Shown here: piece by piece, positions 7,302-59,947 of the stretch | How the letters are laid out: each line of letters opens with the position of its first letter | Numbering within the stretch: position 1 is the first letter of the stretch | NCBI GenBank assembly: GCA_037013685.1 | Contig: CM072898.1 | Coordinates: 1,922,001-1,986,000, forward strand | DNA: 64,000 nucleotides | Direction of reading: 5' to 3' | Source: Acridotheres tristis | Lineage: Eukaryota; Chordata; Aves; Passeriformes; Sturnidae | Notes under the pieces: model-generated | Told to the model about the DNA's origin: nothing | Databases searched by the model: none | What the model saw: only the letters and a program-made list of their open reading frames with translations | Made by a program: the position numbers and the translations under genes

Positions 7302-7812
7302 TGGCACCTGTGTGGGCAGTGGGACCCTGGCTGTCACACACCTGTGTGGGCAGTGGGACCCTGGCTGTCACACACCTGTGTGGGCAGTGGGACCCTGGCT
7401 GTCACACACCTGTGTGGGCAGTGGGACCCTGGTTGTCACACAGCTGTGTGGGCAGTGGGACCCTGGCTGTCACACACCTGTGTGGGCAGTGGGACCCTGG
7501 CTGTCACACAGCTGTGTGGGCAGTGGGACCCTGGTTGTCACACAGCTGTGTGGGCAGTGGGACCCTGGCTGTCACACAGCTGTGTGGGCAGTGGGACCCT
7601 GGTTGTCACAGCTGTGTGGGCAGTGGGACCCTGGCTGTCACACAGCTGTGTGGTCAATGGGACCCTGGTTGTCACACCTGTGTGGGCAGTGGGACCCTGG
7701 CTGTCACACACCTGTGTGGGCAGTGGGACCCTGGCTGTCACACAGCTGTGTGGGCAGTGGGACCCTGGTTGTCACACCTGTGTGGGCAGTGGGACCCTGG
7801 TTGTCACACAAA
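7302..7812. repeat. 34-bp minisatellite, 15 copies, in the GARRE1 3' UTR
   Basis: The core TGTGGGCAGTGGGACCCTGG recurs at 7311, 7345, 7379, 7413, 7447, 7481, 7515, 7549, 7583, 7615, 7649, 7681, 7715, 7749 and 7781. Twelve intervals are 34 bp or close to it, and three are 32 bp after loss of one CA. Units differ mainly at ACACAC versus ACACAG and CTGGCTGT versus CTGGTTGT, and these variants are interspersed. Because 34 leaves remainder 1 on division by 3, long open frames arise in all three forward frames; none is a gene. Confidence 0.97.
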
Positions 7813-10479: not shown

Positions 10480-10567
10480 TCAGTCTACAGGCTTCTGCGT
10501 GCCGGGCGGAGTGGCATCAGCAATTGTAGCTAAATAAATGAGGTTTCTGTGCAGGATATGCTGGTAC
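10480..10567 (-). CDS. SS18L2: SS18L2 exon 3 with stop codon
   Basis: The acceptor has a clean pyrimidine tract ending CTTATAG. The exon completes Gln and encodes YQHILHRNLIYLATIADATP and a short variable tail ending KPVD, with TGA at 10482-10480. Confidence 0.95.
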
Positions 10568-11453
10568 CTATAAGAGGAGGAAAAGGAGGAAACATAGGAT
10601 CTGGGAGACATTCCTTTCTAAACAACTACTCCTGCTTGCACTCGTGTACTCTTATCAGTATTTGCAGTTAGAGAAAAAATACCAAACTAGAATAATAAAT
10701 CTGGGAAAACGTGTTCTTATTCTGAATCCCGGTACAAGGCACTGAACTGCACTCGGTAGCCGAGCCTGTGTTACTAGCCAACTTCCATGGGAAGTAGTAC
10801 ATTCAGCTCGACCCTGAAAGCCGCAGATGGGCAGCGGAGCAGGACAGGGCTGGTGTGAGCAGCTGCAGCGGCTGCCCCGCACGTTCTGGAGCTGTCCTGC
10901 TGTGACAGCGCTCGCTGTGCCACACATGGGCAGAGCGGGCGACACAGGAACACTGAGCAAACACCCTGACCAAGGCGGCCGGGTCGCTCCCTGCTTTCTA
11001 CGTGTCTGAAAACGATTCTGGGGAAACCCTTTTGTAAGCCCAGACGCATTTTCCTGTTAGCAGTAGGAAAGCTCTCGGAACTCGAGCTTCGCTCCGCTCC
11101 CGTTACCGACACCTGGACCCCAGCGCTCCGCCCTCCCCGCCCACGTGAGTCACTTACTGCACGCAGTCGGTGGCGTGACCCTTGCTCTGGTACTCCACGA
11201 TGCACCGGATCAGCTGATCGTTCTCCTCCAGCAGCTGCGGCACAGAGCGCCGTTACCGCCCGCCCGCCCGGCTTCCGCCCCGCCCCGGCCCCGGCTCTAC
11301 GCCAAGCAGGCCGGAAGAGCCCGCGCCACCGTCCGGCTCAGCCTGGGCCCGGTCCCGGCTCCGTCCCGGCCCCGTTTCGCTCACCCGCTGCAGCGTGTCC
11401 TGGTTGACCTCCGCCTTCCCGCGCAGCCGCTCGGGCACGAACGCCACGGACAT
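10480..11453 (-). CDS. SS18L2: SS18L2, SS18-like protein 2 (complete, three exons)
   Basis: Three minus-strand exons (11453-11385, 11234-11158, 10567-10480) join at GT-AG sites into a 77-aa protein, the same length as human SS18L2. It starts MSVAFVPERLRGKAEVNQDT, continues LLEENDQLIRCIVEYQSKG and YQHILHRNLIYLATIADAT, and ends QKPVD-stop. This is the SNH (SSXT N-terminal) domain almost alone; it lacks the QPGY-rich tail with which SS18 and SS18L1 act in BAF chromatin-remodelling complexes. In SS18 this domain docks to BRG1/BRM, and whether SS18L2 does so is less clear. The start ATG lies in a GCCGCC-ATGT Kozak context inside a CpG island. The gene is tandem to and immediately downstream of LSM14A, and convergent with GARRE1. 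The position is notable because human SS18L2 is, to my knowledge, on chromosome 3p. Confidence 0.95.
10568..11157 (-). other. SS18L2: SS18L2 intron 2
   Basis: This 590-bp intron runs from GTAAGTG to CTTATAG. It is moderately GC-rich as the tail of the promoter CpG island. Several open frames on both strands here are composition artefacts. Confidence 0.85.
11158..11234 (-). CDS. SS18L2: SS18L2 exon 2
   Basis: The 77-nt exon lies between GCCGCAG and CA|GTAAGTG. It encodes LLEENDQLIRCIVEYQSKGH then ATDCV, the amphipathic core of the SNH domain, and leaves a Gln codon split across the intron. Confidence 0.95.
11385..11453 (-). CDS. SS18L2: SS18L2 exon 1 (coding part)
   Basis: The ATG is at 11453-11451 with a strong Kozak context. 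The exon encodes 23 residues from MSVAFVPERLRGKA to NQDTLQR and ends at CGG|GTGAGC, phase 0. Confidence 0.95.
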
Positions 11454-34849: not shown

Positions 34850-36400
34850 GGTCTGGCTAGAGCGAGTAGCTCCGGACAGCGGCAGGTGCAAAGCAGAGCA
34901 GCGAACCGCGATCTGTCCGTGCTTGGAGTCTGGGACAGCTCCCTCCGCTGCACGGACGGGCCGGGCGGGGCAGCCGAGGCTCGGTCGCTTCTCCTGGCGG
35001 GACGGGACCGCTCCCTGCGGACAGGCGGGGCAGGGAGGCTGCTCCACACCGAGTCCGTCCCTACGGCACCTCCCTGCACCCGCTGCCGCCCCGCGGCTTC
35101 CCGAGGGGCAGTGCCGCCCTCCCCCAAGATGGCCGCACCTGCCGAGGCGCTCGGGCGGTCCCGGCGCCGGTTCCGAGCGCGCTCCCGCCCGGGTGCCTCC
35201 GGTGCAGCCCCGGGGCGGGGCGGAGGCGGTGGCCCCTCCCATGGTGCCCCGCGCGCGGCACAGACCCGCGCATGCGCACAGCGCCGCCGGCTCCCAGCTC
35301 AGCGCAAGATGGCGGCGGGCGCGTCGGACCCACTGGAGGAGATGCTGCTCTTCTCCGAGGAGGTGGACGAGAAGGCGCTCAGCGACCTGGTGGGATCCCT
35401 GGAATCGCAGCTGGCCGGCGGCCGCGGCCCCGCCGAGCCGCCCCCGCCCAGGACCTCCGCCCCGTCCCAGGAGCCGCAGCCGCAGCAGGGGAGCCTGGCG
35501 GGGGGCAGCAGCCCCGGCCGGCAACAGCACGGCCGCCCTGCGCCCCCTCCCGCGCCCGGGGCAGGGGAGGCGGTGGCGCGCCCCGGCAGCGCGGGGAGCC
35601 GAGCTCCCGCCCAGGGGCCTCTCCCGTCCCCGTCTACCCCGGCGGCGGCGGCAGCGGCGGCGGGGAGGGGAGCGAGTGTAAACAGTAGTAGTGTGCAGCA
35701 ATCACATGGAGCGGCTCCCGGCGGCGGCAGCCCCGCCGCTCCCGCCCCGCCGCAGCCCGCCGCCCCTGCCCAGCCTGTCAACAACCATGTGGCCGCTGCA
35801 GCCGCCGCCGCGCGGGACGCGGGGAGCCCCGGCCCCAGCCCGCCCGCCGCCGACGGCGCGCCCGGGGCCGCGGGGGGCGGCGGGACCCCGGCGGGGGGCG
35901 GCGGAGCGGCGGGAGCGGCCGAGGGCGCCGCCGCTGCCCCCGCGCCGCGCCCCGGCGAGGCGGCGCCCAACGGGGAGGGCGCGGGGGCCCGGGCGGGCGC
36001 GGCGCCGCCCGTTAGCGGGCACGGCGGGGCCGCCGCCGCGCAGCCCCAGCCCGCGCCCGGCGCGCTGCCCGCGGTCACCGCGCTCGGCGCCTCCGCTAGC
36101 CCCGCGCCCGCACCGCCGGCCCCGGGCTCGGCCCCGCCGGCCCCCGTGGCCCCCGCCGCGCCCAAGCCCGCGGTCACCGCCAAGGCGGGTGCTGCCCTGC
36201 CCGCCGCCCCCCAGGCCGTGTCGCCGCGGCCGGCGCTGGGCGCTGCCCCCCGCATTGTGGCCCCGCAGCTGATCGTGCGGCCGCCGCCGCAGACCACCAT
36301 CCAGCTGCCGCCCGGCTTCACCATCCCGCCCGGTAAGTGCTGCGCAGCGCTCCCGGCAGCGCCGCTCCTCTCACCTTCTTCTCTTGGCCGAGGGCTTTTG
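34850..36400 (+). promoter_or_regulatory. CpG island and promoter region of the TAF4-type gene
   Basis: Very high GC and CpG density spans the upstream flank and all of coding exon 1. Two YY1-type motifs, AAGATGGCCGC (35126-35136) and AAGATGGCGGC (35306-35316), each contain an in-frame ATG. The transcription start is not visible. Confidence 0.75.
35309..36332 (+). CDS. TAF4-type gene, coding exon 1
   Basis: The start ATG at 35309 was chosen because MAAG and DEKALSDLVGSLESQL align with the TAF4 N-terminus. The exon is 1,024 nt, mostly Ala/Pro/Gly-rich, ending FTIPP plus one base at G|GTAAGT. The frame stays open upstream, and another in-frame ATG at 35129 would add 60 residues. Confidence 0.9.
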
Positions 36401-39400: not shown

Positions 39401-42400
39401 GTGTTTGTTGTTCATGTTGAAATCATAGGTAGTGCCTCCCAAAGAGGTGATGGTGGCTACCAAATAGATTAAACTGTTAATGCTCAACGTTAAGTGAATC
39501 TCAAATACTGTATACTCAGAAGTGTGTCTGGCCTAATATTTGCATGTACTCATAAGCTGTTGTTTAGTGAAGCTCTCTGGGCATTGTCCCTGGTATGCAC
39601 ATACTCAGTTATATTCCCAGCAGCTGCATTGTCCTTACAGTCTTTACTTTTAATGAGCATTTATTTCTAATTTTGTTCTCCTGACCCTGACTAGACTGCT
39701 AGAAACCACTGTCCCCCAAACAGTCAAGTGGCTGCTTTTTTCATCACTGCTTTCCCTAAACTGCAGTTACTTAAATTCCAAACTGAATTGGGTGTGCTAG
39801 TGGGGACTCCTTTTTTTCTTTGCAATAAAATCTCCTGTTACATGAGAATCAAAAAAGGTAGACTATAGAGAATAATGTAGAGTGCTATACATGGATTTTG
39901 CTCTGCATTCTGTGGTTCTTTGTGTGTTACCTTGGCTGTTGTTTGCTGTGCAGTGACTGTTCCCTGCCCCCCTAGGGATGGTCCTGGTGCGCACGGATGC
40001 CGGACAGCTCGTCATGGTGCCCCAGCAGGCTCTGGCACAGGCTCAGATGCAGGCTCAGGTGCAGACACAGGGACAGGGTCCTGCCAGCATGTCACCCAGG
40101 CTTTCTGTGCCCACCACTGGCCCTGTTTTTCGCCTGTCAACAGCTCAGGTATGTGTGGCTTCATTTCACTTTGGTGCATTATGTCTTACACATTGTTACC
40201 TCATTTGTTTCTGCAGCCGTGCTGTCTTTCCCCTTCTGTTGTGAAAATAGGGAATACTTATTCGAATGTTGTTTATTTTATGAGACCTAGGATTTTTTTT
40301 TAAATTTAAGGAAAAAATCTGCTTTAGAGAGTCTCTTAAGACCTGTGAGAATGAGAGATGATTGGAGGCTGCAAAGCTCAGTCTTAGTCTGGACTGTATA
40401 TCACTGGTTTAGTAAGTGTCCCTTGCTGCTCTGAATCAGAAGTACTGTGATATCCCAGGATGGCTGATTTCACTGGACATTAGAAAAGAGAAAGCTAATC
40501 ACATTCTATCCAAGGATTTGCAATAATTTTTAAATAACTTTAAAAATATACTTTCTTCAAAAGAAAGATTGATTTGATTCTTCTAATTTGCTTCTGGGTG
40601 TGATCTGCCTACACTGAAAGTTTTGCCTGTGTTGTGAGTACATTTCCCTTTTTCTAGGGATTGGTAGGATAGAGTGCTTTCCTATCTCAAATTCATCAGT
40701 GGAATGTGTTGATTTGAACTTGGGGCTGATTTATTTCCTAGGGTGAATGTGGGGTAGTCTTGTGTTTTTTGGTTTGTTTTGGTTTTGGTGTTTTGTTTCT
40801 GTAGGGGTTGTTTTTTTCTTTTGTTTTGTTGTTTATTTAAATTTCTTTGAAGGCTGCATTGGTTCAAAAGTTTCTAGAGAGACAATTTAGCTTTGGGCCG
40901 TTTAGGGCTAGAACTGAGCTATTTCACTGAAATGCAGAGGCAAATATGTTTGGATGTTAGTACAGGGCTGCTGTGCCATAGTAATAAGAGGTGGAGTTTA
41001 AGGTAGTTTTTTCTAAGGTCTGGATTTGCAGAATAGATAAGTAATTCTGTATGGAAAGATTAAAAAGGTGCCTTTACAACTCTTTAGTTGTTGTAGAAGT
41101 TGCTTGAAATAAGTTCAACAGGTATTTCCCAATATTTATCATTTCATTACTTTCCCTTTATATGCTTTATGTATTGCACTGTATTTATAGTCTAAAAGAT
41201 TTTAAAGTTTAATTCAAAACTGAAAACGATGATAAACATTTCACAAGAAAAGGAAGCTGGAATAAATTTGGAGAATTGAAAATAGTAACATGAGGCAATC
41301 TATAAACCACAAAGTAGCCGACTAGAATGTAAGTTTTAGAAGTGAATGTACCTAGGAAGACTGTAGCTCATTGTCAGGAAAGACATAAATGAAAGCCTGG
41401 AATCACTTGGAAAAACTTTATGCTCTCAAAAGAGAGGTAAATGCAGAATTGGATGAAATTTGTTAAAGAACTCGTTGCAGAAAAGGCAGCCATATAATGT
41501 TTAAATTTCTGGTATCTGGAAGAATAAGACCTGTAGAAACCTTCAAAGAGAAATGTATTCCAGGAAAATAAGCACAGAGATAAGCCTGTGTTCATTTACA
41601 GATTTATTTTTTTACTAGTTTGAACAAAATTGCAGCCAGTTCCTGAATTTGTACATCTGTCTTTGGTTGTTGGGGGCTTTCTTTGTGAATAACTGCACTT
41701 CTTTAGTAATTACTACAAGCAGAAGTTCTAGCAGTGGCTCCTGATACAAGTGTGTAGTGTAAGTGCAAAACAGGTGTGTGATGGGACTGTACCAACAGTG
41801 GGATCTAAGTCTGCTAGTTTTAGCTGTTTCTTCCACACTGTTAGTTTTCTATATGGCCAGCATACTGAATTAAAACTCATTATGGAAGTATTCATAAGAG
41901 ATATTAAAAAATCGTTTGTAATTTGAGGACTTCTGAGGAATAAGCTTTACTGCACATGGAATCTAATGAAGTGTGCAGAAGTGTAGACCCCCCTGCTTGG
42001 CTCTGGGTTCAGTCTGGGATTTGGATCCCAAAATCAGCCTTAAGATGTGTGCACAGCAAATGTAGATCATGATGATCTTAGGCAGCTGTTCTCTACTTGT
42101 ATGAAGCAGTTAATGTTGCAGAAGGAGTATAACCCTATTTGATGGATTTATATAAAAATAAACCCATGAGAATACTGCATGTTCAGGTGTTTGTAGAGTC
42201 AGCTGAAATCTGGAGGAGTTCAGGTATTAGAAAGTTGTGTTTGTTTTTGTACAGATTTCTGCCCAGATGAATACCCCACTGCACTGGACACTTGTTTTTT
42301 CCTTTTTTTTTTTTTTGCCTTTACACTACCAAGTGCTAGCACCCTGGCTCAGAATAGAGGAAGTCAGCAAGGCCTTAGGAATGATCAATATCTTGCAAGA

Positions 42401-45400
42401 TGGAAAAGTTTGATTATTTTAGTGTAGGGGGATTAGAATCATGATATTGTAGCTTTTCAGGATTGATCTCCTTTGAAAATCTCAGTGGTAGCTGCCCAAA
42501 CTGTACTGCATCATTTCTCTATTTGTTGTAATTAACAGAGTTAAGAAATAATTAATATTGCCCTTGGGAAATTTGCATTGAACTTCCCTGATTCTGCACT
42601 TGATCTTCAGAGTCTTCTTTCGTTGTGACATACTTATGTTTTGTATGTTTGACCTTAGAGTGTTCTTTAAAAATTGTGGTTGGCAGCCTTTTAAAACAAG
42701 GTTGTAAAGATATAAATTCTAAAACTTTATCTAATCAGAACTAGACACAGGACTTTTATTTGATTAGGTGGATGGTTTATAACCAGACTGTTCATTGTTT
42801 TTCCAGATGAAATGTTCAATGATAAATATTATGCTAAAGTTTTAGAAATGCCAGTTATTTGAGTAGTCATTATAATGAGTCAATTCAGGGATCTGGTTCT
42901 ATGTACTGAAAAATAATTTTTTCAGGGAGTTTTTAATTAAGCTGTTTTATCTCTTTCTGGTGGTCAGAAAGCTGAATTCAGTGAATTAAAATTTCCAGAA
43001 GAAATTTTAAATTAATAAAAAATAATGTCCCCTAGGTTTTTGTTTATATAGAGTATGAATATTCAAGAGTTATGATGTCCACTGTGACTGAAACACAGGA
43101 AAATTGTGGTGCCATTAGCTCAAGACAGAATATAAACATAAATTGCCTGAATCCTGCAAAGTGGTGTGTGAGATGGATGAACATGGCAGGCTATGGAGTT
43201 TTAACCTTTCTTTCTGATATTAGTGGGATGGTTGGTATTTTACTGTGCAGAGCTCATCTTAATTACTGTATCTTTATTCAGTTATTTTAAGATAGCTTTA
43301 TTTGGATTAAAATGCAGAGTGCTTTAAATTTGTAGATCTTAGCATTGTATTTTTGTCACTGAGTTTGTGTTCTACCCTTCTTCTCCCTATGTAGAAAGTC
43401 AGTACAGGTGGAAACTTGCAGTTCATAAGGTATTATTTCCTAGAATCTTAAGGATTTTAGGAAATAATATCTTATGAAGAATGCGTCAGAAAAAGACAGG
43501 GCTTTCATACTTCATGGCTATTCTGGTTGCTGTTCTGCAGATTGTCCTGATTTTTAGCCTAATGACAGCCATTCAGGTGTCACAAGTTACTCAGCTAAGT
43601 GATTGTTTTCATTTGTTTATACACTTTAATTATTGTGATGAGAAAGTCTGTTGTGAGCTATGCAGCTAGATGTAAAATACAGGATATTAAATAACATGCC
43701 AAAGAAATTGCAAAAGCTGGCAGTTACTTTTGGCAACTCATTAAGAAGTGTTGACAGTGCTAACTGGAGAACATAAAATGGATGTGGAATTACTTTTTTT
43801 AAAACTAGAAGAAGGAGTGTCTGAAAAACTACCAAGTGTTCATCTAAATTTGAAAGTTCTTTGGTTCTCTCCCCTTGACAACTGTAATTTCTCCAGTCTC
43901 AAAAAAGGAGGGGAAAATAAGGCAATGTTTTAAATGTTCTGAAATAAGATTGACTTGATCAATACATACAGAACTGTTCAAATTTTAAGCTACTTCTGCA
44001 GCCTGGATACTACTGCAAGATTTTTTTTTCCATACCTAGGGTTATCATTTGCTCACAGATATTTTGGAAGAAAAATGAGCCAGGTTTTCCCTGAAAATTC
44101 CTCTAGCTTCAGCAGCTGGGCTGATATCCAGGACAGTATGTGAGGAAGGAGCCACTTTCCTCTGGGAACAATGGAAGCTGCTGAGATAAGGAAAGTGTAG
44201 TGTGTTTCCTCTGAGGAATTTGTGTAAGGGCTTGAGTAAAGGCTTTCCCTAAAGTCTGTGGCTCTGTCCTTACATATTGTGTTGTTGAAGGTTCAGAAGT
44301 TAAATATCTGTATACAGTAGCACTTACTGTTGCAGGGAATTGATAGAGCCACCCCTCTTCCCTTCCCAAGTTTAAAAAAGGTGTGTTTGGATTGCAGTGC
44401 CAAACACAGGAGTTCAGAAAGACTAAGGTCCTGTTGGTCCTACCTTGCTGTGTCCTGTGGGTGTGCAGTGAATTCCAGTCCTTCCACGACGAATGCTTCA
44501 GCTGGGCAGTCAAGGCACACGATTGAGTTACACAGCAGACTTAAATCTGATGTTTTTTATTCTGTAATTGCTTGCATTTGCTATTTAAGTTGTTTGATTT
44601 CTGCTGTTTATAGTATCTTTATCTTGTTCTTTGCAGCTTTCAGGAGTAGAGGCAGATGTACAGCTTTGGGTAGCTTTGTGTTATATTCTTGGGACAAGAG
44701 AGGCAAATCCATTTTGAAAGAGAAGTCTTGGGTTCTTCTTGACTCTTAGATGGGGTAATCTTTGATTAACATTTAGTTATCCCCCTCTTAATTACTGCTG
44801 TGTAGAGCATGAATAAAATCTGATTGTTTCCATTCTTAGTGGGATTCTGGAAAACTGGCACGTGGGGATAATCACGTACCTTGTAAGGGGGAGCTCAGCT
44901 GGGATCAGTTTAAGGCTGAGCTCAAAGGAGCTGGAGCATGGAGCGTGTCCCAGGGGGGCTGGACCCGTGTCCCGGGGGGCTGGACCCGTGTCCCGGGGGG
45001 GCTGGACCCGTGTCCCAGGGGGGCTGGACCCGTGTCCCGGGGGGACATGGACCCGTGTCCCGGGGGGACAGGGACCCGTGTCCCGGGGGGGCATGGACCC
45101 GTGTCCCGGGGGGCATGGACCCGTGTCCCAGGGGGGACAGGGACCCGTGTCCCGGGGGGCAGGGACCCGTGTCCCGGGGGGCTGGGCAGGGACCCGTGTC
45201 CCGGGGGGCTGGGCAGGGACCCGTGTCCCAGGGGGGCAGGGACCCGTGTCCCGGGGGGCTGGGCAGGGATCCGTGTCCCGGGGGGGGGGACAGGGACCCG
45301 TGTCCCGGGGGGCTGGGCAGGGACCCGTGTCCCGGGGGGCTGGGCAGGGACCCGTGTCCCGGGGGGCTGGGCAGGGACCCGTGTCCCGGGGGGGGACAGG

Positions 45401-48400: not shown

Positions 48401-51400
48401 TATTGATTACAGTGGATTATCTCTATTTCTGGCAGCACTAAGCACTAGATGCAGGAGTTGAAGTGACAAAATTCAGCTGGTTTTTATTCACCAGATATTT
48501 TGGATGAAACCTAGTGATTGCAGGAGGTTCAGCTACTTCACCAGAGAGGAGAAAGTACTTTGATAAGTATTTGCTTCAGCAGTAGGGGTTTTGGACTTAG
48601 AACCCCTGGTTTCTGAAGGTTTTTTCTTGTGGCCCCAAACTCCTCTGCCTGTCATGTGTAATTGCTCTCAGTTCTGTGTCTTCCTGCCCTATTATCCCAA
48701 AAGGGTCATTGTGCACATGAGGAACAGAGCAACATGTCCCTGCTTTGGGTTCTGATGCTGCACTTGGTGACACTGTGGTGGCAGTAAGGTTCTGCCTCTG
48801 TCTGACCTGTTAGACATTCTGTTTCCAGTAACTTTCTGTAATTGTGTGCAAATGTCAGGCTTGTAAAGGGATAATACTTTAGGTCAGTTTCACTGTATTT
48901 TTGCTAGGCTGAAAAAAAATCAAATCTGTGATAGAAAGTTTCTCTGCATCTGACATTTAAGTGCCTGTTCTTGTGAACTGTAACCAGAGGAATTGAGAGG
49001 CAGTCAATCAATATGTGAAGTTTCTCCATGAACTCTTCAGAAGTTTGAGTCTCAGGAAGCCGAGTTTGCTAATGGGGAGTGTTATGATGGATTAATAGCA
49101 GCCATGCCTGGAGGAAAGGTTGGATGAGGTAGTTACTGAAAAATTATGTGGTAGTTGACCCTGGCTGGACACCAGGTGCCCACCAGAGCCTCTCCATCCT
49201 TGCCTTCCTCAGCTGGATGGGGAGAGAAACTGTAAGGAAAGTCTTGTGAGTCAGGATAGAGATCCCTCACCTGGTACTGACAGAAAAACAGACTTGATTG
49301 GAGGAGAATTAATTCATTACCAATCAAATCAGAGTTGGATAATGAGAAATAAAATCTAAATCTTAAGAAATCTTCTCCTCAGCCTTCCTTTCTTCCTGAG
49401 TTTAACTTTACTCCCAACTTTCTCCACCTCTCCCCCAGTGGTGCAGGGGGATGGGGAATGGGGGCTGTGCTCAGCTCATCCCAGGTCATCTCTGCTGCTC
49501 CTTCCTCCTCAGGGGAAGGGCTCCTCACACTCCTCCTGTGCTCCAGTGTGGGGTCCCTCCCACAAGAGACAGTGAGCTCCATGAGCTGCTCCATCCTGGT
49601 CCCTTCCCATGGGTGCAGTCAGTCCTTGAGGAGCTGCTCCAGCCTGATCCTTCCCATGGGTGCAGTCAGTCCTTGAGGAGCTGCTCCATCCTGGTCCTTC
49701 CCATGGGTGCAGTCAGTCCTTGAGGAGCTGCTCCATCCTGATCCTTCCCATGGGTGCAGTCAGTCCTTGAGGAGCTGCTCCATCCTGATCCTTCCCATGG
49801 GTGCAGTCAGTCCTTGAGGAGCTGCTCCATCCTGATCCTTCCCATGGGTGCAGTCAGTCCTTGAGGAGCTGCTCCAGCCTGGTCCTTCCCATGGGTGCAG
49901 TCAGTCCTTGAGGAGCTGCTCCATCCTGATCCTTCCCATGGGTGCAGTCAGTCCTTGAGGAGCTGCTCCATCCTGATCCTTCCCATGGGTGCAGTCAGTC
50001 CTTGAGGAGCTGCTCCATCCTGGTCCTTCCCATGGGTGCAGTCAGTCCTTGAGGAGCTGCTCCAGCCCAGGTCCCCTGTGGGGTCACAGCCTCCTTCAGG
50101 CACCCCCTGCTCCCGTGGGGGGCCCTGCAGGGGCTGCAGGGGGATCTCTGCTCCATCCTGGAGCCCGGGGGCTGCAGGGGCACAGCTGCCTCTCCCTGGG
50201 CTGCACCCCGGGCTCGGGGGAGCCTCAGCTCCAGCCCTGGAGCAGCTCCTGCCCCTCCTGGGCTTTGCAGAGCTGCTCCTCTCCCATCCCCTCACTCCTC
50301 TCACCCAGCTGCAATCCCACGGGGATTTCCTCTCCCTTCCTAAATGTCCCCCAGAGGTGCTGCCACTGTCACTGATGGGCCCAAATTTGGCTCTGCTGGA
50401 CGCAGGGGAAGCTTCTGGCAGCTTCTCACAAAGCGACCCCAGCACCAAAACCTGGCCATGCTAAGCCAGTGCAAGTGAGCTCCCAGATTTGACCTTTGGC
50501 TTCTGCCCGTGTCTGTGATCCCACTTCAGTTTTCTTTGTTAAACAGTGCCTTGATTGTTCAAGGTATCTCAGATGGTATCTTAGCATGGTCTGTTGAATT
50601 TATAAGAAGTCTTCTAGATTAATGATTAGAAATAAAATTGAATTTCATGTCAGATTTTTCAGACCTTGTGAAAATTGCGTTTTGCATAACACTTAGTGAA
50701 GCCATGTATTGGATGATGTAAAGAGGTGTCACAATCTCTAGAAAACCTTGGCTTTTGTGTTAGTGTTTGTTCAAATGCTATTGGGATATTTTCTTCTTTT
50801 TGGTTGATGGTGGCCAAATTTATTGACAGGAATGATCATGAAAAATGTGTGGAACTTATTTGTCAGAAGTGAGCTCTAGTGCAGAGCCTGTGCTGCTGGT
50901 ACCTGGAGTGTTGGTCATTACGTGGTTTTGTAGTGCAAAATACAAGTGTAACCCAAACCTGCTCCCAAGGATTTGCATATTAACCCTCTGGCAGTTTGAC
51001 TTCATTTGGTAAAGCTGTGAATATGCAATGCAATCTCTAAAATTGGTACAGTCCTGCCTTGACAAATAATCTTTGGCTATTTTGACTGTTTTCTCCATAT
51101 TCAAGTGACTTGCTTTTTCAAATGCAGCCCTGTGTATTCGTTGAAGTACAGAAACAGCTTGTTTGTGCACAGCAGGTGCAATGGATTGTCTCCCAAGCTT
51201 TGCCTCCCTGTTCATGTTCCTAGAGCTCTGGGGAGAAGGAAAGTAGAGATGTTGTTTAAGGAGTGAATTTATAGGACACTGAATATTTCTGCACTGTGAA
51301 CAGTTCCAACGTGCTCTGACTGCCTAAGTGGAAGTGACTTGTGGCACCCTGAAATGGGAGTCCCTTGTGTTACCTGTGTGACTTGGGCAGGCAGAACAAA

Positions 51401-54400
51401 CCTTGGGACACCCCCCCAGCCCAGGCTGTCCCTCCTGAAATCCTCCTTGCCTCTGCAGCACTGTGCTGCACAGAGCCAGCTCAGCTCTGTGTGCAGATGC
51501 ATCCTGCAGTGTCCCCTGGGCATCAGGAGCAGGTTATGGACTCTGCTCATTCATGGTCTGCCTTCCTGCCTGTTCGTGTCTGAGCACAGGGCAAAAGGCT
51601 CTTCAGTGGTACTTCTGCGTTTTTAGGGAATGTAAAAACATCTGATTTATCTAATACTAATAATAGTTACATTTGAAAATGTATTTCTTTCTAACTCTTC
51701 TGGTAATTGCAGAATTTAATAGCATCCTACCCAGTCTCAGTAGCTTTTCCTTAAGCAACATCATGAATTCTTTTAGATTCTTCCAGTAGGAACTTGACAA
51801 CATTGAGTTATGATTTTTTTGTTAAAGTACTGTTCGTAATTTTTGTTTTCTTTTTGACATATTTCTCATGAGATCTGTTTACAAGTTTCCTTCCATAGAA
51901 AACACAGCTTTTTCTTTCTAAATCATTTTTATCAGTTCTGGAAGCATTCATGTTGGGTTTGAGTGTCTTCTGGCAACTTGTAGCTGTCACTTGAAGATCA
52001 TTTCCATGATACTTAAGAATTTCTCCAGGCTAGTCCCTCATTATGTTTCTCATCTCCTCATTTCTTATTTACTTTTTTAACCCTTCTGAGTTTTGGAGCC
52101 AGGTTTGTAAAACCATTGCATTACTTTGTTTGTGGTTCTTTGGTGGCGAGGGATTTGTTCATACCCAGCACAGTAGTGGATTTTATTGCCATTTTCTATC
52201 AAAGGCTTCTGTCACTATTGATTTTTAAAACCAAGGGTGAATTTAGTCTTCAAGTTTCACAGTTTGCTGCTGAGGTCTGGCACATTGGAATACATTCTTA
52301 GTTGAATATTATAATAGTGAAAATTTGTATTTTAATTTTATTTTCACGTATGTTCCTGTGTTGAATAATGGGCATTTATTAGCTGAGAAAAATTCTCTAG
52401 CTTGCAGTCTCACTCTGTATTTGTGAATTTCTGGCTGTAGGTTCTTGCCTGGAAGCAAGTAGCTGCCAGAACTGCCCCTGGCTGTCTGCTTGTTTCCTAA
52501 AGCCTCATTTCTGGAAGCCCAGACTGATAACGGGGCAGATATCACAGGCATGCTGCCTTCTTAGGCTGGAAATTGATTATAAGCAAGTCAACAAGATACA
52601 CAATATTTATGTTTTAAGTGCAGCACTCATGGGGTAGATATAATTTCATTCAACCAGTATTTTAAAATACTTGGTCATTTTTATAGTGAAGAAAGGAGGT
52701 GTAGGGTGTTTAAAACAGAAAAAGCTTATATGGTCCTTCTTCCAAAAAACCAGACAGTTCTTCCTCTTCATGATGATGCTGTTTATTGTCTCCAGGCTGT
52801 CTCAGGATGGAAGGCATCCCTAGTCAAGATTTTAAAAATCTTGAAAGCTACACAAACAAAAGAAGGGGTTTGTTCAGATGTCAGGTAGATTTATTTGATT
52901 TGGTTTTTTTCCTCCTTTTTTTCCCCCAGTACAGAAGATTGATATCCAGTAGATGATGTTGCTGGACTGATTTGTAAGGAATGCTTGGGGCTCTGAATGC
53001 CTGCCTGGGCTTCTGTTCCTTTTGGAGATATTTTAGAGTAGACTGCATGTTTTTTGGAGAAGTATTTTATGTAGGTTGAATAGACAATGTAAGGATTTAA
53101 AATAAGCAATTGTTTATAAAATATGAATTTTAGAGACTTACAAATTAAAATTTAAATCAAGGAAAACTAGTTTTATCTTGTGAGAAACAACATCAGCCAT
53201 GATATATTACTCTATCCACTTGGAAAATTTGTCTTTTTCAAGTGTGTGAATGCATATCTTAATAAATGCAAGTTCTAAGACACCAATGTGGCCTCTGTTT
53301 TTAGTAATGTGTGGTTCTCATTTTGTCATAATTGCCATATTGTATGATGCATTTCATTTATAATGGTATTTATATTCCTGCAGAATTAAGTAACTTCTGT
53401 GGAGACACTTTTTAATTCCTAAATCTTGTCCTTTTTTGAGGTGGCAAGAGATTTCAGGCTTGCATTGAAAGTAAATCACAAAATAAGTAATATGTTTGCT
53501 AAATGAGATACATTTCCTGAGCTACAGAATGTAGTACTGACTGAAAAGCTGTAGGTCAGTCATTTTCCTTTGTCTGCACTTCACATTGCAGTTGCTGTCT
53601 GGGTACAGAGCCTGTGTTCTATGACAAAGGTTCTCCCAATGCTTAGATTTCATTTCTCTGCAAGTTTATTTCTTTATAATTCCATCTGAAATTATTTTAA
53701 GGATATTTTTCTGCTTTCTGAATTTTCTGTCCATATTGATTTTCATAAAGAAAAAGCACTAGAACAGGCCTGTAAATACCAAGAGGACCAATATGTGCTA
53801 CTGGTAATGATAAACTCAAATATTGATGAGTACTGACACATACATTGATGCATTAAATCAGTTGTAATATTTAACATCAATTTTTTTGCAGGTCACTTTT
53901 GTTTTTTCTAGTCTTTTCCATACAGCTGTACGAGTAGTAGATTTTAGGAGAAACATTGCAAACCTATCATTGAACATGAGAAAACTTAATTTTTCCAGTA
54001 TTTGTGAATATATATATAAAAGCACATTACTAGCTTTGATTTTTTTTTTTTCGCTGCATTAATAACGATTATTCTTGTAATCGCCATTATTAAAAAGCCT
54101 TGGAGATGAAGTTACTAAAGGAGAAAAGAAAATAAAACGCTTTGCTTTCCTTTTTTCAGCAGGCGCCGTCCGTGGGCAGCCCCAGCGTGCGCCTGGGGCT
54201 GCCGGTGCAGGCCAAGGTGGTGCCGGCCCCGGCCCCGGCCGCGCCCGCCAGCGCCACGGCCACGCTGCCGGCAGCCGCCCTGCTGCCCCACACCACGGTC
54301 AGTGCCACACGGAGGGGACATCCAGGGCACAGACATGCGGGAGGTGTTCCCTGGGTGGGTGTCTGGAATAGCTGTGGCTGTCCCTGCATCCCTGGCAGTA

Positions 54401-57400
54401 ATTATGTCGAGATGGACACGACTGCATCGCCATCAGTCCTTTATTAAAAACTTCACGTGCCTTCTCTCAATGAACTTCTTTCAGGCAACTCTGACTCCTT
54501 CTCTCAAAGGCAGCTCCACACAGCTCTGACTTTGTCTCCTCTCTGCATGACTGACTAAACCCCAACCTGTCCCTTTCCCAGCCACCTAACCCTGTCTGTC
54601 CTCACACAGCATCTTCTTACCTTGTCTGTCCCTGACACCACCACATGTCCCTTCCTCAGAGCACAGCCAGCACACTCCGGGTCTCAAGCTCCAACCCAAA
54701 CTGTAACTTGTGGCCAGCTAGCCACTCTTTTATACCACCCAAACTCACTGGGCAGGCACAGATGTTTGCACTGCTCAGTAATCAGTACAGCTGGAATTCA
54801 TTGGGAAAAAATGCACTATGCTTACAACCTATCTTCCCACAAAAGACCAGGTTGGATGGGGCTTGGAGCACCCTGGGACAGTGGAACTGGATGAGCTTTA
54901 AGTCCCTTCCATCCCAAACCATTCTGTGATTTTATGATTTACGTGGTTTTTTGAAAGTGAGAATTAATATTTTTTTCGCTATAAAATATTAATAGGTATC
55001 AGTAGCTACGACGAGCGCTCAGAATTTGTTCAAGACAACAGTAGCAACTGGAACTTCAGCTCCTCAGCAGGCTGCAGTGATGAGTGGTGGGCAGAGCCAG
55101 GGCTCAGCCCAGCCCCAGGGCCAGCCAAGGCTGCCACTCCCTCCTCACACGGCAGCGCAGGTGCCAGCACAGCCCCTGGTCATCCCCAGCTCTCCTGTGC
55201 CTGGAACTACAGTAGTGTCGCAGGCAAGTGGGAAATCAGTGGAAACATGGTTTTATTAGGACTTTAGGAACTCCTCCTGTACCTTCAGAAGTAGGAAGAG
55301 CTTTTTCTTCAAGCAGGCACGTATCTCCCAGTGGAACAAATACTTGACAAACAGGAAGACGCTTCCCCTGGTTTTGGCTGAATGGGATCCAGATTCTGAG
55401 AAGGGAGGAGGAACAGTTGTGATGAGCTTTCCCCCTGCTGCCATGTGTGTGGCACTAGTGACAGAGCTACTGTTCCTGTAGCCAGAATCTTCACTCTATG
55501 GACTTCATGGTTATCCTGTTGCTGGGCCTCAAAACTATGGTTACACTGAAGTGTGACGTTTCTGTTTCTTGGAGCAATTACACCATATAAAAATAATGGC
55601 TTGGTTTACTACTAATGAAAAAAAGACTAGATATGATGATGTTTGAAGACTTTCTTCTAATTTGATTTTACTGCTGTAGATGCTTTGTACAAAAACATAC
55701 TGAATCAATAATTTAACAAATTAAGATAGCTTGGGGAACGTTTGTACATTGTCTAATGGGCATCTCAAAGCAGAATGCATCTCAAGCAAATTGTTGTGTT
55801 ACTTCTCATATTTAAGGTTATTTGTACCAAAGCAGACTGTAAAATATAACATGTATTTCTTTCATTGATTTTTTTTGTTGTTGTTATTTGCGAGATATGA
55901 TGCTCAGTTACCTAAAGAAGGTAAGAAAGTCTCAGGTAACAAGCAATAATAGTAAAACAAATTTCATATATAGCCTGTCTGAATCAGAAAAACTTCATAA
56001 TTTTCCTTATTTGTAGTGGTCAGAGCATGCTTTGATTGTGATAGAAAAATAGTATGGAGCTAATACTTGTTTTCTTTGGCTTTTGCAGGAAATGCAAGAG
56101 AATGTGAAAAAATGTAAAAACTTTTTAGCTACCCTTATAAAACTTGCTTCTCATAACTCACCATCTCCAGAAACATCCCGCAATGTGAAAGCTTTGGTTC
56201 AAGATTTGCTGGTAAATATTTAGTTACCTTTTATTTTGTCAGTTTAATAGATAACTTCTTATTTATGGATGCTGAAAACTATTGCTTTGATTCTTAACAA
56301 TTATTTTGGCTGTAATGAAAGGAGTTGGGCTTCATCAAAATGCAATATTCTGTACATGATATATATTAAAAAAATCTATTAAAGGCGGCCTTTGTTTTGG
56401 TTTTTGAAAGGGAAAATACAGCAAAGTTTTTAGTAGGCACTTATCAAAGCCACTCTTGTTTTGACGAGTAATATTTTGGTTGTTTCTTTAGCAAAAGACA
56501 AGATTTTTCCTTGAGGATTCAAGTTAAGTTTTTTTTTTTAAATTCCAAACTCTGATCTTCTCTGAAACAAGAAGCTCATAATTTTTGAAGCACGTAATGA
56601 GTACAGATAGAATCCTTTCACAACGTGATGTGGAGTTTCTAGGACTGAAGGAAAAGTATTTTCCTGAGCTGCTGATGTTCAGCTGCTCTGCAGACAGATG
56701 TCCCTGTCTGGTGCCTCGGTGGCACAGGGGTTTCCAGAGGCAAAGCTGTGTTGGAGTCCTCGGGGCCAGAAAAAGGCTGGGCTTGCTGCAGTCTCCAGTG
56801 CAACAGATACTGCAGTGAATTGTGTAAATGAGCTGCAGACAGAGGTCACTGGAGCTGGGAGAAGACTTAAGCTTCTTAAAAGAAATGTAATATAGTCTAT
56901 GAAAAACTTGGGTTTAAAAGTAGTTGCTATACATTTCTTTGAATTCATTGCCAGAGAAATCTGTGTGTTTTAGACAAGCCTAAGACTGTTTTCAAGTGTG
57001 AGCCATTCAACAATCACATTCAGTGATTCCAGTGAAAACTTGTTTTCATTTTTAAAGACTCGAAAAGAGTAAATAAGTAAAGGTACCTGCTTACGGTATT
57101 TTAAACAAAGTACCAACACACATATATCATAAATATGTATATTGAAGCTTGTTCTGTATCAGATAGGAAAGCTAATTATTGTTTTTATTACAACCTGAAC
57201 TTTTAACTAATGATACTTTAGAAGTATCATAAAATGCACCCAAGTTAGAATTCTCTAGAATTACTACTAAATAATGATTGACTATGTATTTGATATAAGT
57301 GTGTATTTTGTGAGTATACATACAAATTCATAGAGGAGAAAATTTTATATCTACTTATAAGCATGCTTTATCTAATTGCCATGCTTTACATATATAGTTT

Positions 57401-59947
57401 TAAATATATGGATTCTGCAAGTTAAATTGTATCATCAGAATTGGTTTTGAAATTATTACAAAGGCTGACAAATTTTGTATTTGTAAGGTTACATCAACAA
57501 CCTGTTATTGAAAAAGAAAGAAATCACTATGTACATGTTAGCAAGAGAGTGGAGTCCCAAAAGAGACTTGAGTGTTTCTGGGCCCTCATTTTGTCTTAAG
57601 TTGTGCATCCCCAAAGGAATTCCCTGAATTTTGAGTGGCGTTTTACATGTTTGAATGCTTGGCAGGAGGATCTTAGAGAGGAATTAAGGGACTTCAGCTC
57701 TGAAAGTTTCTGATGTGGCAGCCTCTTTAGCTAGAGAGACATGTGTATACAGTAACTGGGAAAAAGGCAACCAAACAACTGAACTGAGATGTTGATGCTT
57801 TTTTTTCTTCACCCTGAAGGATGCAAAGATTGATCCAGAAGAATTTACAGGCCGCCTTCAAACAGAACTCAAATCATCTCCTCAGCCATATCTTGTACCT
57901 TTCCTTAAGGTAATGTGAATATTGTTTGGTTAGATTTATTTCAGTGCAAAATTTCATTACATTAAGTCTTAGAATATCCTTTTTTATTAGTGTTATTTTC
58001 ACTGTAGTCCAGAGCAGGAGTACACTTCCTTTACTCCTGAATGCTCCCCATTTCTGCCAAGATCCTTCTGGCTGGAGGCCCCGTGCAGGCTGTGCCTGTG
58101 TCAGGCCAGGCAGGTGCTGCTCACAGCCTCAGTGGCCCTGGGCTGCCCCAGGCACAGTGGGGAGGAACAGGGAATTCCCACTGGAAGGAGACCTTGTGTG
58201 TTTGGGACCTTGGCTGAGTTTGAAAAACATGTATTTGTCATCCAGAGCTGATGTGGAGTTCACAGCTTGAGTAGCCCTGATCTAGAACGTTGCAGTAATT
58301 AGTTAAAAAAAACCCCAAACAGTTACTCCCTAGTTTGGAAACCATCCATTGGCTATTCTGTAGTGATCCTTTACTTTTAGAATTAATACATTTTCTGTGG
58401 TAGTAGGTAATTTTTTGTGAAGAAGAAAAGCATTCACATTTCAAAGAGTCCCAAGTCATTTTTTACAGAATACTTCAAGCACTTTAATAAGCTGTTGCCA
58501 TACTGTTTTCCTAAGTTGTATTTGGGTCGTTGATAACTTTCAAACCACGTGTAACAATGATTATGAAAAACTGAACTGGATCAAGTGTTGATTAGATGAT
58601 TCTGCTTCTAATCTGGAACTAATCAACAGTAGAATTTCTGATGTGATACCAGATAGATTTATTGTATGGTCCTAAGTTAGTGTATGTGTATGTAAATTTA
58701 ATTGGTTCTGTAAATCAGCTACAATAACTTCCATATGCAGGATAATATGCAAACATAAAAAACATGTTCAAGTCCCAACAAAACCATGAATATGATTTTT
58801 AAAGTATTTTTTGTCTAGTTCAAAACTTCTCTGTTTAGGGCTGATTTTTCTCTCTCTTGTCTCCCTGCAACTTTGCTTCAGAACTTCTGCTCCTGTTTTT
58901 ACAAGTTAACATTAACTCTTGTTTGTGGCTTTTATTGCAGTCACTTCTAGCATCATGATTAAGTTTTGATTTATATCCTTTCTTTGAAGTCCTTTCTGGG
59001 TAACAGGCATTAAGTTTTTAAATCAATATTAGAAGTTTAGAAAGAGCTGTAGCTTGGGCTAAACACTGTTGCATTCTACAGCTGCCTAGGGGAGCACTTC
59101 AAAAGAACACTTCTGCCACTTAAAAAGTAAAAAGTTTGTTCAGGAAGGTACAGTACAGCCTTTTTGAAGTATGTTTTCCTTGAAATGATATGTGCAATAG
59201 TACAATTTTTAAATCCACTCATAATACGTTACTTCAGAAATAATACAATAAACAGCTACTGCTGTAGGGCACTGAGAGTGAAATCATCTGGTTCTAGGTA
59301 CTGGAGGTGTGTTAGGAGGAGTAAATTGGTGCAGCTTGCTGGGAATAGGGTTTTTCCATGGTTCTGCCTTATCTGCTTCTATTTCTTGCCTGTCCAAAGA
59401 CCCAAGCTACAAGTTCTAGATAGTCTTGAGAAGAAGAGTGTTATGTTTTTCTGCTACAGTGGAATTAAGGGCACGCTAAAATCTACAGGGTTGCTAAATC
59501 TAAATTGAAAGCTTATTAAAAACTGAACTTTCTCATATAAAATATGCTAAATCTCAGTTCTGTTTGGTGAACAGGCAGTTAGTAAAATTGGAAAGAAAAA
59601 ATTCTTTTAATTATGTTTACAGCAAATTTCAAAATGCTTTTTATCAATCCGCCAAATTTGATGTTTCATAAACTTTCTTCTGTTTGTAGAAAAGTCTACC
59701 TGCACTGAGACAATCCTTACTGAATAGTCAGCATTTGGTTTTGCAAGGCCAGCCGTCTCAGCAGTCACTCCAGCAGAGCAAGCTCTCACAAGTTATACCT
59801 CAGTCTGCCTCGGGAAGCATCTCATCTGTTGTCACCACGCAGACAATAGGAATAAGGCAACCAAACAACATTTGCACAGTGTCTGTATCAAATACAGTGC
59901 AGCCTCCTCAGGTTAAGGTGGTACAGTCAAATCAGAGTTCTCAACTG
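35309..59947 (+). CDS. TAF4-family TFIID subunit, probable third TAF4 paralogue (N-terminal 678 codons; 3' end outside window)
   Basis: Seven exons (35309-36332, 39976-40148, 54160-54297, 54996-55223, 56089-56211, 57820-57909, 59690-59947) join in one frame. The N-terminus MAAGASDPLEEM and VDEKALSDLVGSLESQL strongly resembles TAF4. About 280 residues of Ala/Pro/Gly low complexity follow, then TTIQLPPGFTIPPGMVLVRT and QLVMVPQQALAQ, a coactivator-binding stretch of TAF4 proteins. A TAFH/NHR1 domain occupies residues about 522-610 (ENVKKCKNFLATLIKLAS, LVQDLLDAKIDPEEF, SSPQPYLVPFLKKSLPALRQ). TAF4 pairs with TAF12 through a C-terminal histone fold, which must lie to the right of the window. Some segments match TAF4 better (MVLVR, SLPALRQ), others TAF4B (TTIQ, LLDAKI, LKSSPQP), and it sits beside LSM14A, unlike either human gene. 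It may already be annotated as TAF4-like in bird gene sets. Confidence 0.9.
36333..39975 (+). other. TAF4-type gene intron 1
   Basis: This 3.6-kb AT-rich intron runs from GTAAGT to CCCCCCTAG. It has T-rich tracts, and I recognise no repeat or nested gene. Confidence 0.8.
39976..40148 (+). CDS. TAF4-type gene, coding exon 2
   Basis: The acceptor is a CCCCCCTAG tract and the donor is CAG|GTATGT. The exon encodes GMVLVRTDAGQLVMVPQQAL and a Gln-rich run (AQAQMQAQVQTQGQG), then Ser/Pro-rich sequence. It matches the MVLVR-QLLMIPQQALAQ block of TAF4. Confidence 0.92.
43422..43478 (+). ncRNA. Candidate RNA hairpin (26-bp stem, 5-nt loop), function unknown
   Basis: Arm 43422-43447 (TTCATAAGG.. to ..AGAATC) pairs with 43453-43478 (GATTTTAGG.. 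to ..TTATGAA) over 26 bases around a TTAAG loop. The only two non-Watson-Crick positions (43430/43470 and 43443/43457) are G:T, so RNA from the plus strand would be fully paired by G:U. It is sense to the host intron. It could be a miRNA-like hairpin, a palindromic MITE remnant or neutral; the loop is short for a miRNA precursor. Confidence 0.35.
44938..45461. repeat. G-rich minisatellite with self-complementary core, ~21 copies
   Basis: The unit GGACCCGTGTCCCGGGGGG is separated by CT, CAT, ACAGG or CTGGGCAGG spacers, giving periods of about 21-28 bp. Each GGGAC-CCGT-GTCCC core can fold on itself, and the G6-G9 runs could form quadruplexes on the plus strand. The long open frames here on both strands are repeat translations. 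Confidence 0.95.
45700..45790 (+). mobile_element. CR1-like LINE 3' end remnant
   Basis: It contains GGTTGGACTCATTGACCTTT, CCTTTTCCAACCTAAATGA and ends ACAATTCTGTTCTAT, resembling the last part of CR1 with its ATTCTRTG tail. Short and diverged. Confidence 0.65.
45950..46030. repeat. AT-rich low-complexity (ATA/ATT) tract
   Basis: Irregular runs of ATAATAAT and TTTATAAT in TAF4-type gene intron 2. Confidence 0.85.
49583..50065. repeat. 47-bp minisatellite, ~10 copies
   Basis: GTGCAGTCAGTCCTTGAGGA followed by GCTGCTCCATCCTGATCC and TTCCCATGG recurs every 47 bp, beginning at 49613, 49660 and on to 50036. Copies are nearly identical, varying at CCATCC/CCAGCC and TGATCC/TGGTCC. A GC-rich non-repeated stretch follows to about 50460. 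Confidence 0.95.
54160..54297 (+). CDS. TAF4-type gene, coding exon 3
   Basis: This GC-rich 138-nt exon follows TTTTTTCAG and encodes QAPSVGSPSVRLGLPVQAKV, an Ala/Pro-rich run and LLPHTT, ending ACG|GTCAGT. The acceptor is a CAGCAG tandem (NAGNAG). The phases are 0/0. Its protein sequence is poorly conserved, so support comes mainly from frame, splice sites and coding-like GC content. Confidence 0.75.
54298..54995 (+). other. TAF4-type gene intron 3
   Basis: This 698-bp intron ends in a CR1 3' tail (54838-54945). The C/T-rich part before it (about 54400-54830) has a repeat-like look, possibly more transposon, but I cannot name it. Confidence 0.75.
54838..54945 (+). mobile_element. CR1 LINE 3' end remnant
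   Basis: It reads GGTTGGATGGGGCTTGGAGC, CCCTGGGACAGTGGAACTGG, ATGAGCTTTAAGTCCCTTCC and ends ATTCTGTGATTTTATGATTT, the typical CR1 terminus with short 3' repeats. An internal segment is missing relative to the consensus. Confidence 0.85.
54996..55223 (+). CDS. TAF4-type gene, coding exon 4
   Basis: The exon encodes VSVATTSAQNLFKTTVATGT, a Gln/Ser/Pro-rich stretch and PGTTVVSQ. The acceptor is TAATAG, and the donor is the non-canonical GC type CAG|GCAAGT; only this keeps the frame into exon 5. Start coordinate is accurate to about 2 nt. Confidence 0.8.
55224..56088 (+). other. TAF4-type gene intron 4 (GC-AG intron)
   Basis: The intron starts GCAAGT rather than GTAAGT and ends TTTTGCAG. The nearby GT (GTGGGA, four bases later) would shift the frame and hit a stop. 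No other feature seen. Confidence 0.8.
56089..56211 (+). CDS. TAF4-type gene, coding exon 5 (TAFH domain, first half)
   Basis: The exon encodes EMQENVKKCKNFLATLIKLA, then SPSPETSRNVKALVQDLL. The VKKCKNFL and TLIKLA segments are hallmarks of the TAF4 TAFH/NHR1 domain. It lies between TTTTGCAG and CTG|GTAAAT. Confidence 0.95.
56212..57819 (+). other. TAF4-type gene intron 5
   Basis: This 1.6-kb AT-rich intron splits the TAFH domain. No recognisable repeat or gene inside. Confidence 0.8.
57820..57909 (+). CDS. TAF4-type gene, coding exon 6 (TAFH domain, second half)
   Basis: The 90-nt exon encodes DAKIDPEEFTGRLQTELKSS and PQPYLVPFLK, a near-identical block in TAF4/TAF4B. Acceptor CTGAAG, donor AAG|GTAATG. 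Confidence 0.95.
57910..59689 (+). other. TAF4-type gene intron 6
   Basis: This 1.8-kb intron has a GC-richer patch at about 58050-58220 that I cannot identify. The rest is AT-rich and featureless to me. Confidence 0.8.
59690..59947 (+). CDS. TAF4-type gene, coding exon 7
   Basis: The exon encodes KSLPALRQSLLNSQHLV, completing the TAFH domain, then a Gln/Ser-rich linker with VVTTQTIGIRQPNN and QVKVVQSNQSSQL. Acceptor GTTTGTAG, donor CTG|GTAGGT, phases 0/0. Later exons are not in the window. Confidence 0.9.

What the first reader, a model, noticed from the sequence alone, without database searches (positions are those of the whole stretch)
35309..59947. Possible third TAF4 paralogue, absent from the human gene set
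Seen: seven in-frame exons encode a TAF4-type N-terminus (SDLVGSLESQL), the MVLVR/QLVMVPQQALAQ block and a complete TAFH domain. Known: humans have TAF4 (20q13.33) and TAF4B (18q11.2), and neither is beside LSM14A and GARRE1. The protein mixes TAF4-like (MVLVR, SLPALRQ) and TAF4B-like (TTIQ, LLDAKI, LKSSPQP) features, as expected of a separate branch. Inference: a third vertebrate TAF4 gene kept in birds and lost in mammals, which would allow alternative TFIID composition.
Basis: partly seen in the sequence, partly recalled or inferred. Interest (0 to 1): 0.75.

Follow-up and report, generated by a model that had tools for sequence, protein, structure and literature searches.

The report
Third vertebrate TAF4 gene, not in mammals
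This bird carries a third, intact-looking version of TAF4, a building block of the machine that starts gene transcription; it seems to descend from the ancient vertebrate genome duplications, is kept from sharks to birds, and did not turn up in any mammal, lizard, snake or frog among the relatives that our search listed.

Summary
Seven in-frame exons at 35309-59947 encode 678 residues; residues 330-678 are 100% identical to a predicted 1008-aa "TAF4-like" protein of the common myna. Seven more exons lie beyond the window, so residues 1-954 of 1008 were located without stops; the last exon was not reached. The same genome has TAF4 and TAF4B on other large contigs. In a 47-row tree TAF4, TAF4B and this gene (here TAF4C) are three clades with supports of 99-100; TAF4 and TAF4C each hold cartilaginous fish, ray-finned fish and tetrapods. 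The three genes sit in matching blocks (SS18-type, proteasome alpha, LSM14, TAF4) with the same orientations and different losses. TAF4C is therefore a third ohnologue, not a bird novelty. Of the 120 best relatives listed (of 2259), none is named as mammal, lepidosaur or frog. Databases already hold it, named TAF4-like, TAF4 or TAF4B. Nine searches of an open paper library found no description. Its place in TFIID is inferred, not shown.

The parts
35309..36332 (+). TAF4C coding exon 1 (start codon, EVDEKALSDLVGSLESQL motif, GC-rich Ala/Pro-rich stretch, ends phase 1)
   Evidence: 2 residue differences from myna protein P0001, both in the low-complexity part (compared by eye)
39976..40148 (+). 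TAF4C exon 2 (MVLVRTDAGQLVMVPQQALAQ block)
54160..54297 (+). TAF4C exon 3
54996..55223 (+). TAF4C exon 4 (GC donor GCAAGT)
56089..56211 (+). TAF4C exon 5, first half of TAFH (41 codons; the corresponding exon matches in TAF4 and TAF4B are about as long)
57820..57909 (+). TAF4C exon 6, second half of TAFH (30 codons)
59690..59947 (+). TAF4C exon 7 (KSLPALRQ and the Gln/Ser-rich linker); exons 8-14 lie outside the window at G000:C16:1991191-2057834
14537..30196 (-). LSM14-family gene (LSM14A), head-to-head neighbour; start codons 5.1 kb apart
10483..11453 (-). three-exon 77-residue SS18-family gene (SS18L2-like), third member of the same paralogous block
   Evidence: PF05030 SSXT 102.2 bits; the name SS18L2 is recalled
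   Evidence: positions; no Pfam match for the one piece tested; name recalled

Best explanation
The gene is a third TAF4 (called TAF4C here; not an official name), an ohnologue of TAF4 and TAF4B born in the genome duplications before living jawed vertebrates split. Shown: three separate clades, three matching gene blocks in one genome, an open reading frame that carries TAFH and most of the histone-fold/C-terminal TAF4 domain, and conservation from sharks to birds. Inferred: the protein pairs with TAF12 through its histone fold, enters core TFIID in place of TAF4 or TAF4B, and offers its own TAFH groove and linker to activators, giving a third kind of TFIID. It was probably lost independently at least in the lines to mammals, lepidosaurs and frogs, where TAF4 and TAF4B suffice.
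For: Tree: 47 rows, 359 columns, each clade 99-100 by both supports; TAF4C holds cartilaginous fish, ray-fins, coelacanth, amphibians, turtles, a crocodylian and birds, and TAF4 holds cartilaginous fish, ray-fins and tetrapods. 102 of 102 usable rows form one clade among 288 rows (72 of 360 rows dropped by my motif cut, 18 of them). Own genome: C25 = TAF4 (matches 91-100% to Catharus TAF4 outside the N-terminus and one 66% match), C3 = TAF4B (TAFH exons 94-95% to quail TAF4B, all matches 55-96%), C16 = this gene. Blocks: C25 SS18L1-type(-) PSMA7(+) LSM14B-type(-) TAF4(+); C16 SS18L2-like(-) LSM14A(-) TAF4C(+); C3 SS18(-) PSMA8 relic(+) TAF4B(+). A passage of PMC3436827 lists KCTD1; PSMA8; SS18; TAF4B; ZNF521 as one cluster. 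TAFH also marks a second trio of loci on the same three contigs C3, C16, C25 (MTG/CBFA2T naming recalled). Domain identity: duck-turtle TAF4C 96.4%, thrush-turtle TAF4 96.4%, guineafowl-turtle TAF4B 89.7%. At least eight species have both TAF4 and TAF4C rows (names; clades).
Against: No expression, interaction or TFIID data. Among rows marked 'lgn' (short contigs that look like transcripts; my reading), one bird TAF4 appears (P0165) but no TAF4C among the 120 rows, a weak hint of low or narrow expression. The last exon (residues 955-1008) was not found in the DNA I could fetch (to C16:2070000); it rests on the myna prediction. No outgroup was available, so the order of the duplications, and that they are younger than the split from invertebrate chordates, are open. 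Songbird TAF4C is on a longer branch (0.055, against end branches of 0.003-0.01 for three other birds), and the myna is only 91.9% identical to turtle, which may mean relaxed constraint. TAF4B rows came only from mammals, birds and turtles, so TAF4B's own age rests on the blocks, not on the tree. Absence in mammals, lepidosaurs and frogs rests on a list of 120 of 2259 matches.
Confidence: 0.93

Rival explanations
1. A lineage-specific duplicate of TAF4 or TAF4B in birds or sauropsids (segmental or retroposed).
For: Birds and turtles make up 83 of the 120 listed rows, many named just 'TAF4-like'.
Against: Shark, chimaera, bichir, eel, coelacanth and salamander rows fall in the same clade; bichir, conger and chimaera have a separate TAF4. 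The gene has introns, at about the same TAFH positions as TAF4 and TAF4B, and its LSM14 and SS18-type neighbours are duplicated with it.
Confidence: 0.02
2. A decaying or non-functional copy in this bird.
For: No transcript evidence seen; longer songbird branch; last exon not located.
Against: No stop or frame break in the 14 exons read; usable splice sites at each junction read; in the myna protein P0001, 253 of 271 C-terminal and 90 of 92 TAFH residues are identical to duck; the window TAFH is 70 of 80 identical to shark TAF4C.
Confidence: 0.05
3. A real, expressed protein that works outside TFIID, for example as a TAF12 partner or an activator-binding cofactor.
For: At six of the 12 sites that separate TAF4C from TAF4 the TAF4C residue differs from the commonest TAF4B residue too: Q576, L602, A809, W856, E874, A905 in P0001 numbering; each TAF4C residue is in at least 95% of 21 rows, sharks to birds.
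Against: The histone fold and C-terminal domain used by TAF4 in TFIID are present and, between duck and turtle, as conserved as in TAF4; many residues are invariant across TAF4, TAF4B and TAF4C rows.
Confidence: 0.1

Closest known systems
TAF4 (TFIID subunit 4; human in PDB 30ff, 6mzm, 2p6v, 1h3o)
   Same: Same order of parts: N-terminal motif, MVLVR block, TAFH, histone fold, C-terminal domain; 69% identity over the two domains, myna TAF4C to thrush TAF4; same block with an LSM14 gene head-to-head.
   Different: Separate clade; 12 sites that differ at 95% or more; other contig; TAF4C not seen in mammals, lepidosaurs or frogs among the rows listed.
TAF4B
   Same: Same domains; TAF4B mostly shares the TAF4C residue at 6 of 12 diagnostic sites; its block keeps SS18 and a PSMA8 relic.
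   Different: 62.5% domain identity, myna TAF4C to guineafowl TAF4B; separate clade; TAF4B diverges more between birds and turtles.
Drosophila nht and Arabidopsis taf4b
   Same: Extra TAF4-type subunits beside the general one.
CBFA2T/MTG (ETO) proteins with NHR1
   Same: Related TAFH/NHR1 domain: ETO and CBFA2T1 chains match at about 1e-9; three further TAFH loci lie on the same three contigs (naming recalled).
   Different: The matches cover the TAFH part only; no TAF4 histone fold in them (recalled).

Membership tests
TAF4 family (TFIID subunit 4) | TAFH domain PF07531 | tested here: met
   121.7 bits against cut-off 27 in P0001; both TAFH exons lie in the window.
TAF4 family (TFIID subunit 4) | TAF4 C-terminal domain with histone fold, PF05236 | tested here: met
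   298.8 bits against cut-off 33 in P0001. In this genome exons for residues 679-954 were found beyond the window; the last 54 residues were not reached.
TAF4 family (TFIID subunit 4) | Heterodimer with TAF12 and presence in TFIID | not testable with these tools
TAF4 proper | Falls in the TAF4 clade | tested here: not met
   TAF4 clade excludes it, 100/99; TAF4 is on C25.
TAF4B | Falls in the TAF4B clade | tested here: not met
   TAF4B clade excludes it, 100/100; TAF4B is on C3.
Ohnologue from the early vertebrate genome duplications | Copies in matching multi-gene blocks on different chromosomes | tested here: met
   SS18-type, LSM14 and TAF4-type genes in the same order and orientation on contigs C16 and C25; SS18 and TAF4B on C3.
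Ohnologue from the early vertebrate genome duplications | Split older than living jawed vertebrates | tested here: met
   Cartilaginous fish on both sides of the TAF4/TAF4C split.
Ohnologue from the early vertebrate genome duplications | Split younger than the divergence from invertebrate chordates | not tested
   No lamprey, amphioxus or tunicate row was among those listed.
Retrocopy or pseudogene | No introns, or broken frame | tested here: not met
   14 exons found with open frame and usable splice sites; last exon not reached.

The most novel reading that the evidence does not exclude
Jawed vertebrates began with three TAF4 subunits and hence three possible TFIID types; mammals, the source of nearly all TFIID knowledge, kept only two. 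In a number of ray-finned fish, sharks and birds a gene now called 'TAF4' or 'TAF4B' is in fact TAF4C, so work on those species may concern a TFIID that humans do not have.
Probability: 0.6. Interest if true: 0.65.

Novelty: new member of a known kind. Interest (0 to 1): 0.55.

Why it matters
TFIID is the first factor to bind most protein-gene promoters and is usually described from human and mouse (recalled). A third TAF4, slowly evolving outside songbirds, kept for some 450 million years (recalled age) and apparently lost several times, makes a natural test of what each TAF4 does. It also exposes hidden paralogy: rows of the TAF4C clade are named TAF4 (Alligator P0030, zebra finch P0022, duck P0023), TAF4B (basking shark P0091, Anableps P0096) or TAF4-like (names, clade), so cross-species comparisons may mix genes.

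Tried and rejected
Rejected: that the gene is TAF4 or TAF4B itself; a retrocopy (introns); a bird-only duplicate; that marsupial 'TAF4-like' proteins are mammalian TAF4C. Sarcophilus P0185 and Macrotis P0240 fall with TAF4 (Macrotis on a long branch of 0.49). Dromiciops P0226 was in that tree but its row was not printed; it is 83% identical to the human TAF4 query over 89% of it.

Led nowhere: Antonova et al. 2019 on TFIID evolution is not held (one search was a wrong id), so I could not check whether it mentions a third vertebrate gene. Paper searches of the open library gave no description in what I saw: TAF4, TAF4B, ohnolog, chicken: 20 of 36 listed; 0 papers; 7, none on a vertebrate third gene by the listing; 1; 19; 1; 1; 20 of 38 listed; 3. 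Passages only were seen of PMC12871804, PMC7010400, PMC11423858, PMC9690401 and PMC3436827; of the rest, the listing. No KCTD1-like exon in the fetched DNA, so the far flank could not be compared. The genome search answered once.

Rows changed or dropped: Rhinatrema and the typed human TAF4B fell out by my cut and Mauremys P0048 was half length; Vombatus and Dromaius TAF4B went in without TAFH; 72 of 360 rows were dropped.

Full report
OBSERVATION. The window lies at G000:C16:1922001-1986000 of a 1.04-Gb genome. Seven exons on the plus strand join in frame from the ATG at 35309 to 59947. Exons 2-7 have AG acceptors; six exons have GT donors and exon 4 a GC donor. The spliced 678-residue product holds the EVDEKALSDLVGSLESQL N-terminus, the MVLVRTDAGQLVMVPQQALAQ block and a whole TAFH. 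The TAFH matches human TAF4 (2p6v) at 3.9e-32. This is far beyond chance.

WHOLE PROTEIN. Residues 330-678 are 100% identical to P0001, 'TFIID subunit 4-like' of Acridotheres tristis, 1008 aa. The window's bird is thus a common myna or a close relative (inference). P0001 has TAFH and the TAF4 histone-fold family domain, both far over cut-off. Mapping P0001 on the genome gave seven more exons beyond the window, C16:1991191 to 2057834, with usable splice sites and no stops, reaching residue 954. The last exon was not in DNA fetched to 2070000.

SAME GENOME, THREE GENES. TAFH exons occur as pairs on C16 (this gene), C25 and C3; three further loci lie on C3, C16 and C25 (I take these for the MTG/CBFA2T family, from recall). 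The C25 gene matches thrush TAF4 at 91-100% outside the N-terminus and one 66% match; the C3 gene matches quail TAF4B, with TAFH exons at 94-95% and all matches at 55-96% (first seen). The two TAFH exons code for about 41 and 30 residues in all three.

TREE. With 47 rows and 359 columns of TAFH plus C-terminal domain (IQ-TREE, PMSF), TAF4 (16 rows), TAF4B (10) and TAF4C (21) are three clades at 99-100 by both supports and in 100% of 200 bootstrap trees. A 288-row FastTree gave the same three groups, with 102 of 102 usable rows in one (72 of 360 rows were dropped because my motif cut failed, 18 of them). TAF4 and TAF4C each hold cartilaginous fish, ray-fins and tetrapods. Their split therefore predates living jawed vertebrates. 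The tree is unrooted; no statement is made on which two genes are sisters. My TAF4B rows are from mammals, turtles and birds only.

BLOCKS. tblastn of neighbours on fetched DNA: C25 has an SS18L1-type gene (-), PSMA7 (+), an LSM14B-type gene (-) and TAF4 (+). C16 has an SS18L2-like gene (-), LSM14A (-) and TAF4C (+), with no proteasome match found. C3 has SS18 (-), degraded PSMA8-like pieces (+) and TAF4B (+), with no LSM14 match in the 100 kb fetched. Order and orientation agree wherever a member is present. LSM14 and SSXT identities in the window rest on Pfam; the finer names, and the PSMA7, PSMA8 and SS18 queries, are recalled. PMC3436827 (passage only) lists KCTD1; PSMA8; SS18; TAF4B; ZNF521 as one cluster. 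From recall, human TAF4 is beside LSM14B, PSMA7 and SS18L1 on 20q13.33. This block evidence does not depend on the tree.

DISTRIBUTION. By my count of the names, the 120 rows are 49 birds, 1 crocodylian, 34 turtles, 4 salamander or caecilian, 1 coelacanth, 24 ray-finned fish and 7 cartilaginous fish: 0 mammals, 0 lepidosaurs, 0 frogs. The same database returns mammal, snake, lizard and frog TAF4 readily. Only 120 of 2259 matches were listed, so a very divergent copy in those groups is not excluded. At least eight species hold both TAF4 and TAF4C rows: Catharus ustulatus, Cariama cristata, Caretta caretta, Mauremys mutica, Lepidochelys kempii, Polypterus senegalus, Conger conger, Callorhinchus milii (names, clades). 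On the accepted tetrapod tree, absence in mammals, lepidosaurs and frogs needs at least three losses (inference).

CONSTRAINT. Over the two domains, duck-turtle identity is 96.4% for TAF4C, thrush-turtle 96.4% for TAF4 and guineafowl-turtle 89.7% for TAF4B. The myna itself is 94.7% identical to duck and 91.9% to turtle, and songbirds sit on a branch of 0.055 against end branches of 0.003-0.01 for three other birds: songbird TAF4C evolves faster. Shark-duck TAF4C is 79.4%, above duck TAF4C against thrush TAF4 (70.5%). Twelve sites differ between TAF4 and TAF4C at 95% or more in each; at six the commonest TAF4B residue is that of TAF4C, and at the other six TAF4C differs from both.

MECHANISM. 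Shown: an open, conserved gene with both TAF4 domains. Inferred from TAF4: the histone fold pairs with TAF12, the protein goes in two copies into core TFIID, and TAFH binds activators. Most likely TAF4C makes a third TFIID composition with its own tissues or promoters. Not shown: expression, TFIID entry, function. A weak contrary hint is that a bird TAF4 appears among rows from short transcript-like contigs, and no TAF4C does among those listed.

KNOWN OR NEW. The sequences are in public databases under automatic names, so the gene is not unknown as a sequence. The names are inconsistent (TAF4, TAF4-like, TAF4B for one clade). None of nine paper searches in the open library turned up a description of a third vertebrate TAF4 in what was listed (in only 20 hits were listed). 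Most subscription papers are not in that library, and a review of TFIID evolution, Antonova et al. 2019, could not be read.

VERDICT. The better statement is: a third TAF4 ohnologue of jawed vertebrates, kept widely, and not seen in mammals, lepidosaurs or frogs.

CHANGES ON CHECKING.

Noticed in passing
window 10483-11453 (-): A three-exon, 77-residue SS18L2-like gene lies where the SS18-type member of the block is expected, suggesting that SS18L2 is the truncated third SS18 ohnologue.
   Followed up: partly
G000:C3:104696944-104700114 (+): Between SS18 and TAF4B only three short PSMA8-like pieces are found, one with a stop; the testis proteasome gene PSMA8 looks decayed in this bird. The fetched C3 stretch has 1306 N.
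   Followed up: partly
P0026 and P0031: The kakapo has two TAF4C-type proteins listed on contigs of different length: a possible extra copy, or two assemblies.
   Followed up: no
C16, C25, C3: A second TAFH/NHR1 trio, probably the MTG/CBFA2T genes (recalled), lies on the same three contigs as the TAF4 trio, so two TAFH families may share one ancient chromosome set.
   Followed up: no
window 44953-45454, 49583-50064, 7305-7810: Long minisatellites of period 27, 47 and 34 (about 20, 10 and 15 copies); the first two lie in TAF4C intron 2.
   Followed up: no
tree: Songbird TAF4C (two rows) shows a stem branch of 0.055 against end branches of 0.003-0.01 for three other birds, a rate rise worth a selection test.
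   Followed up: no
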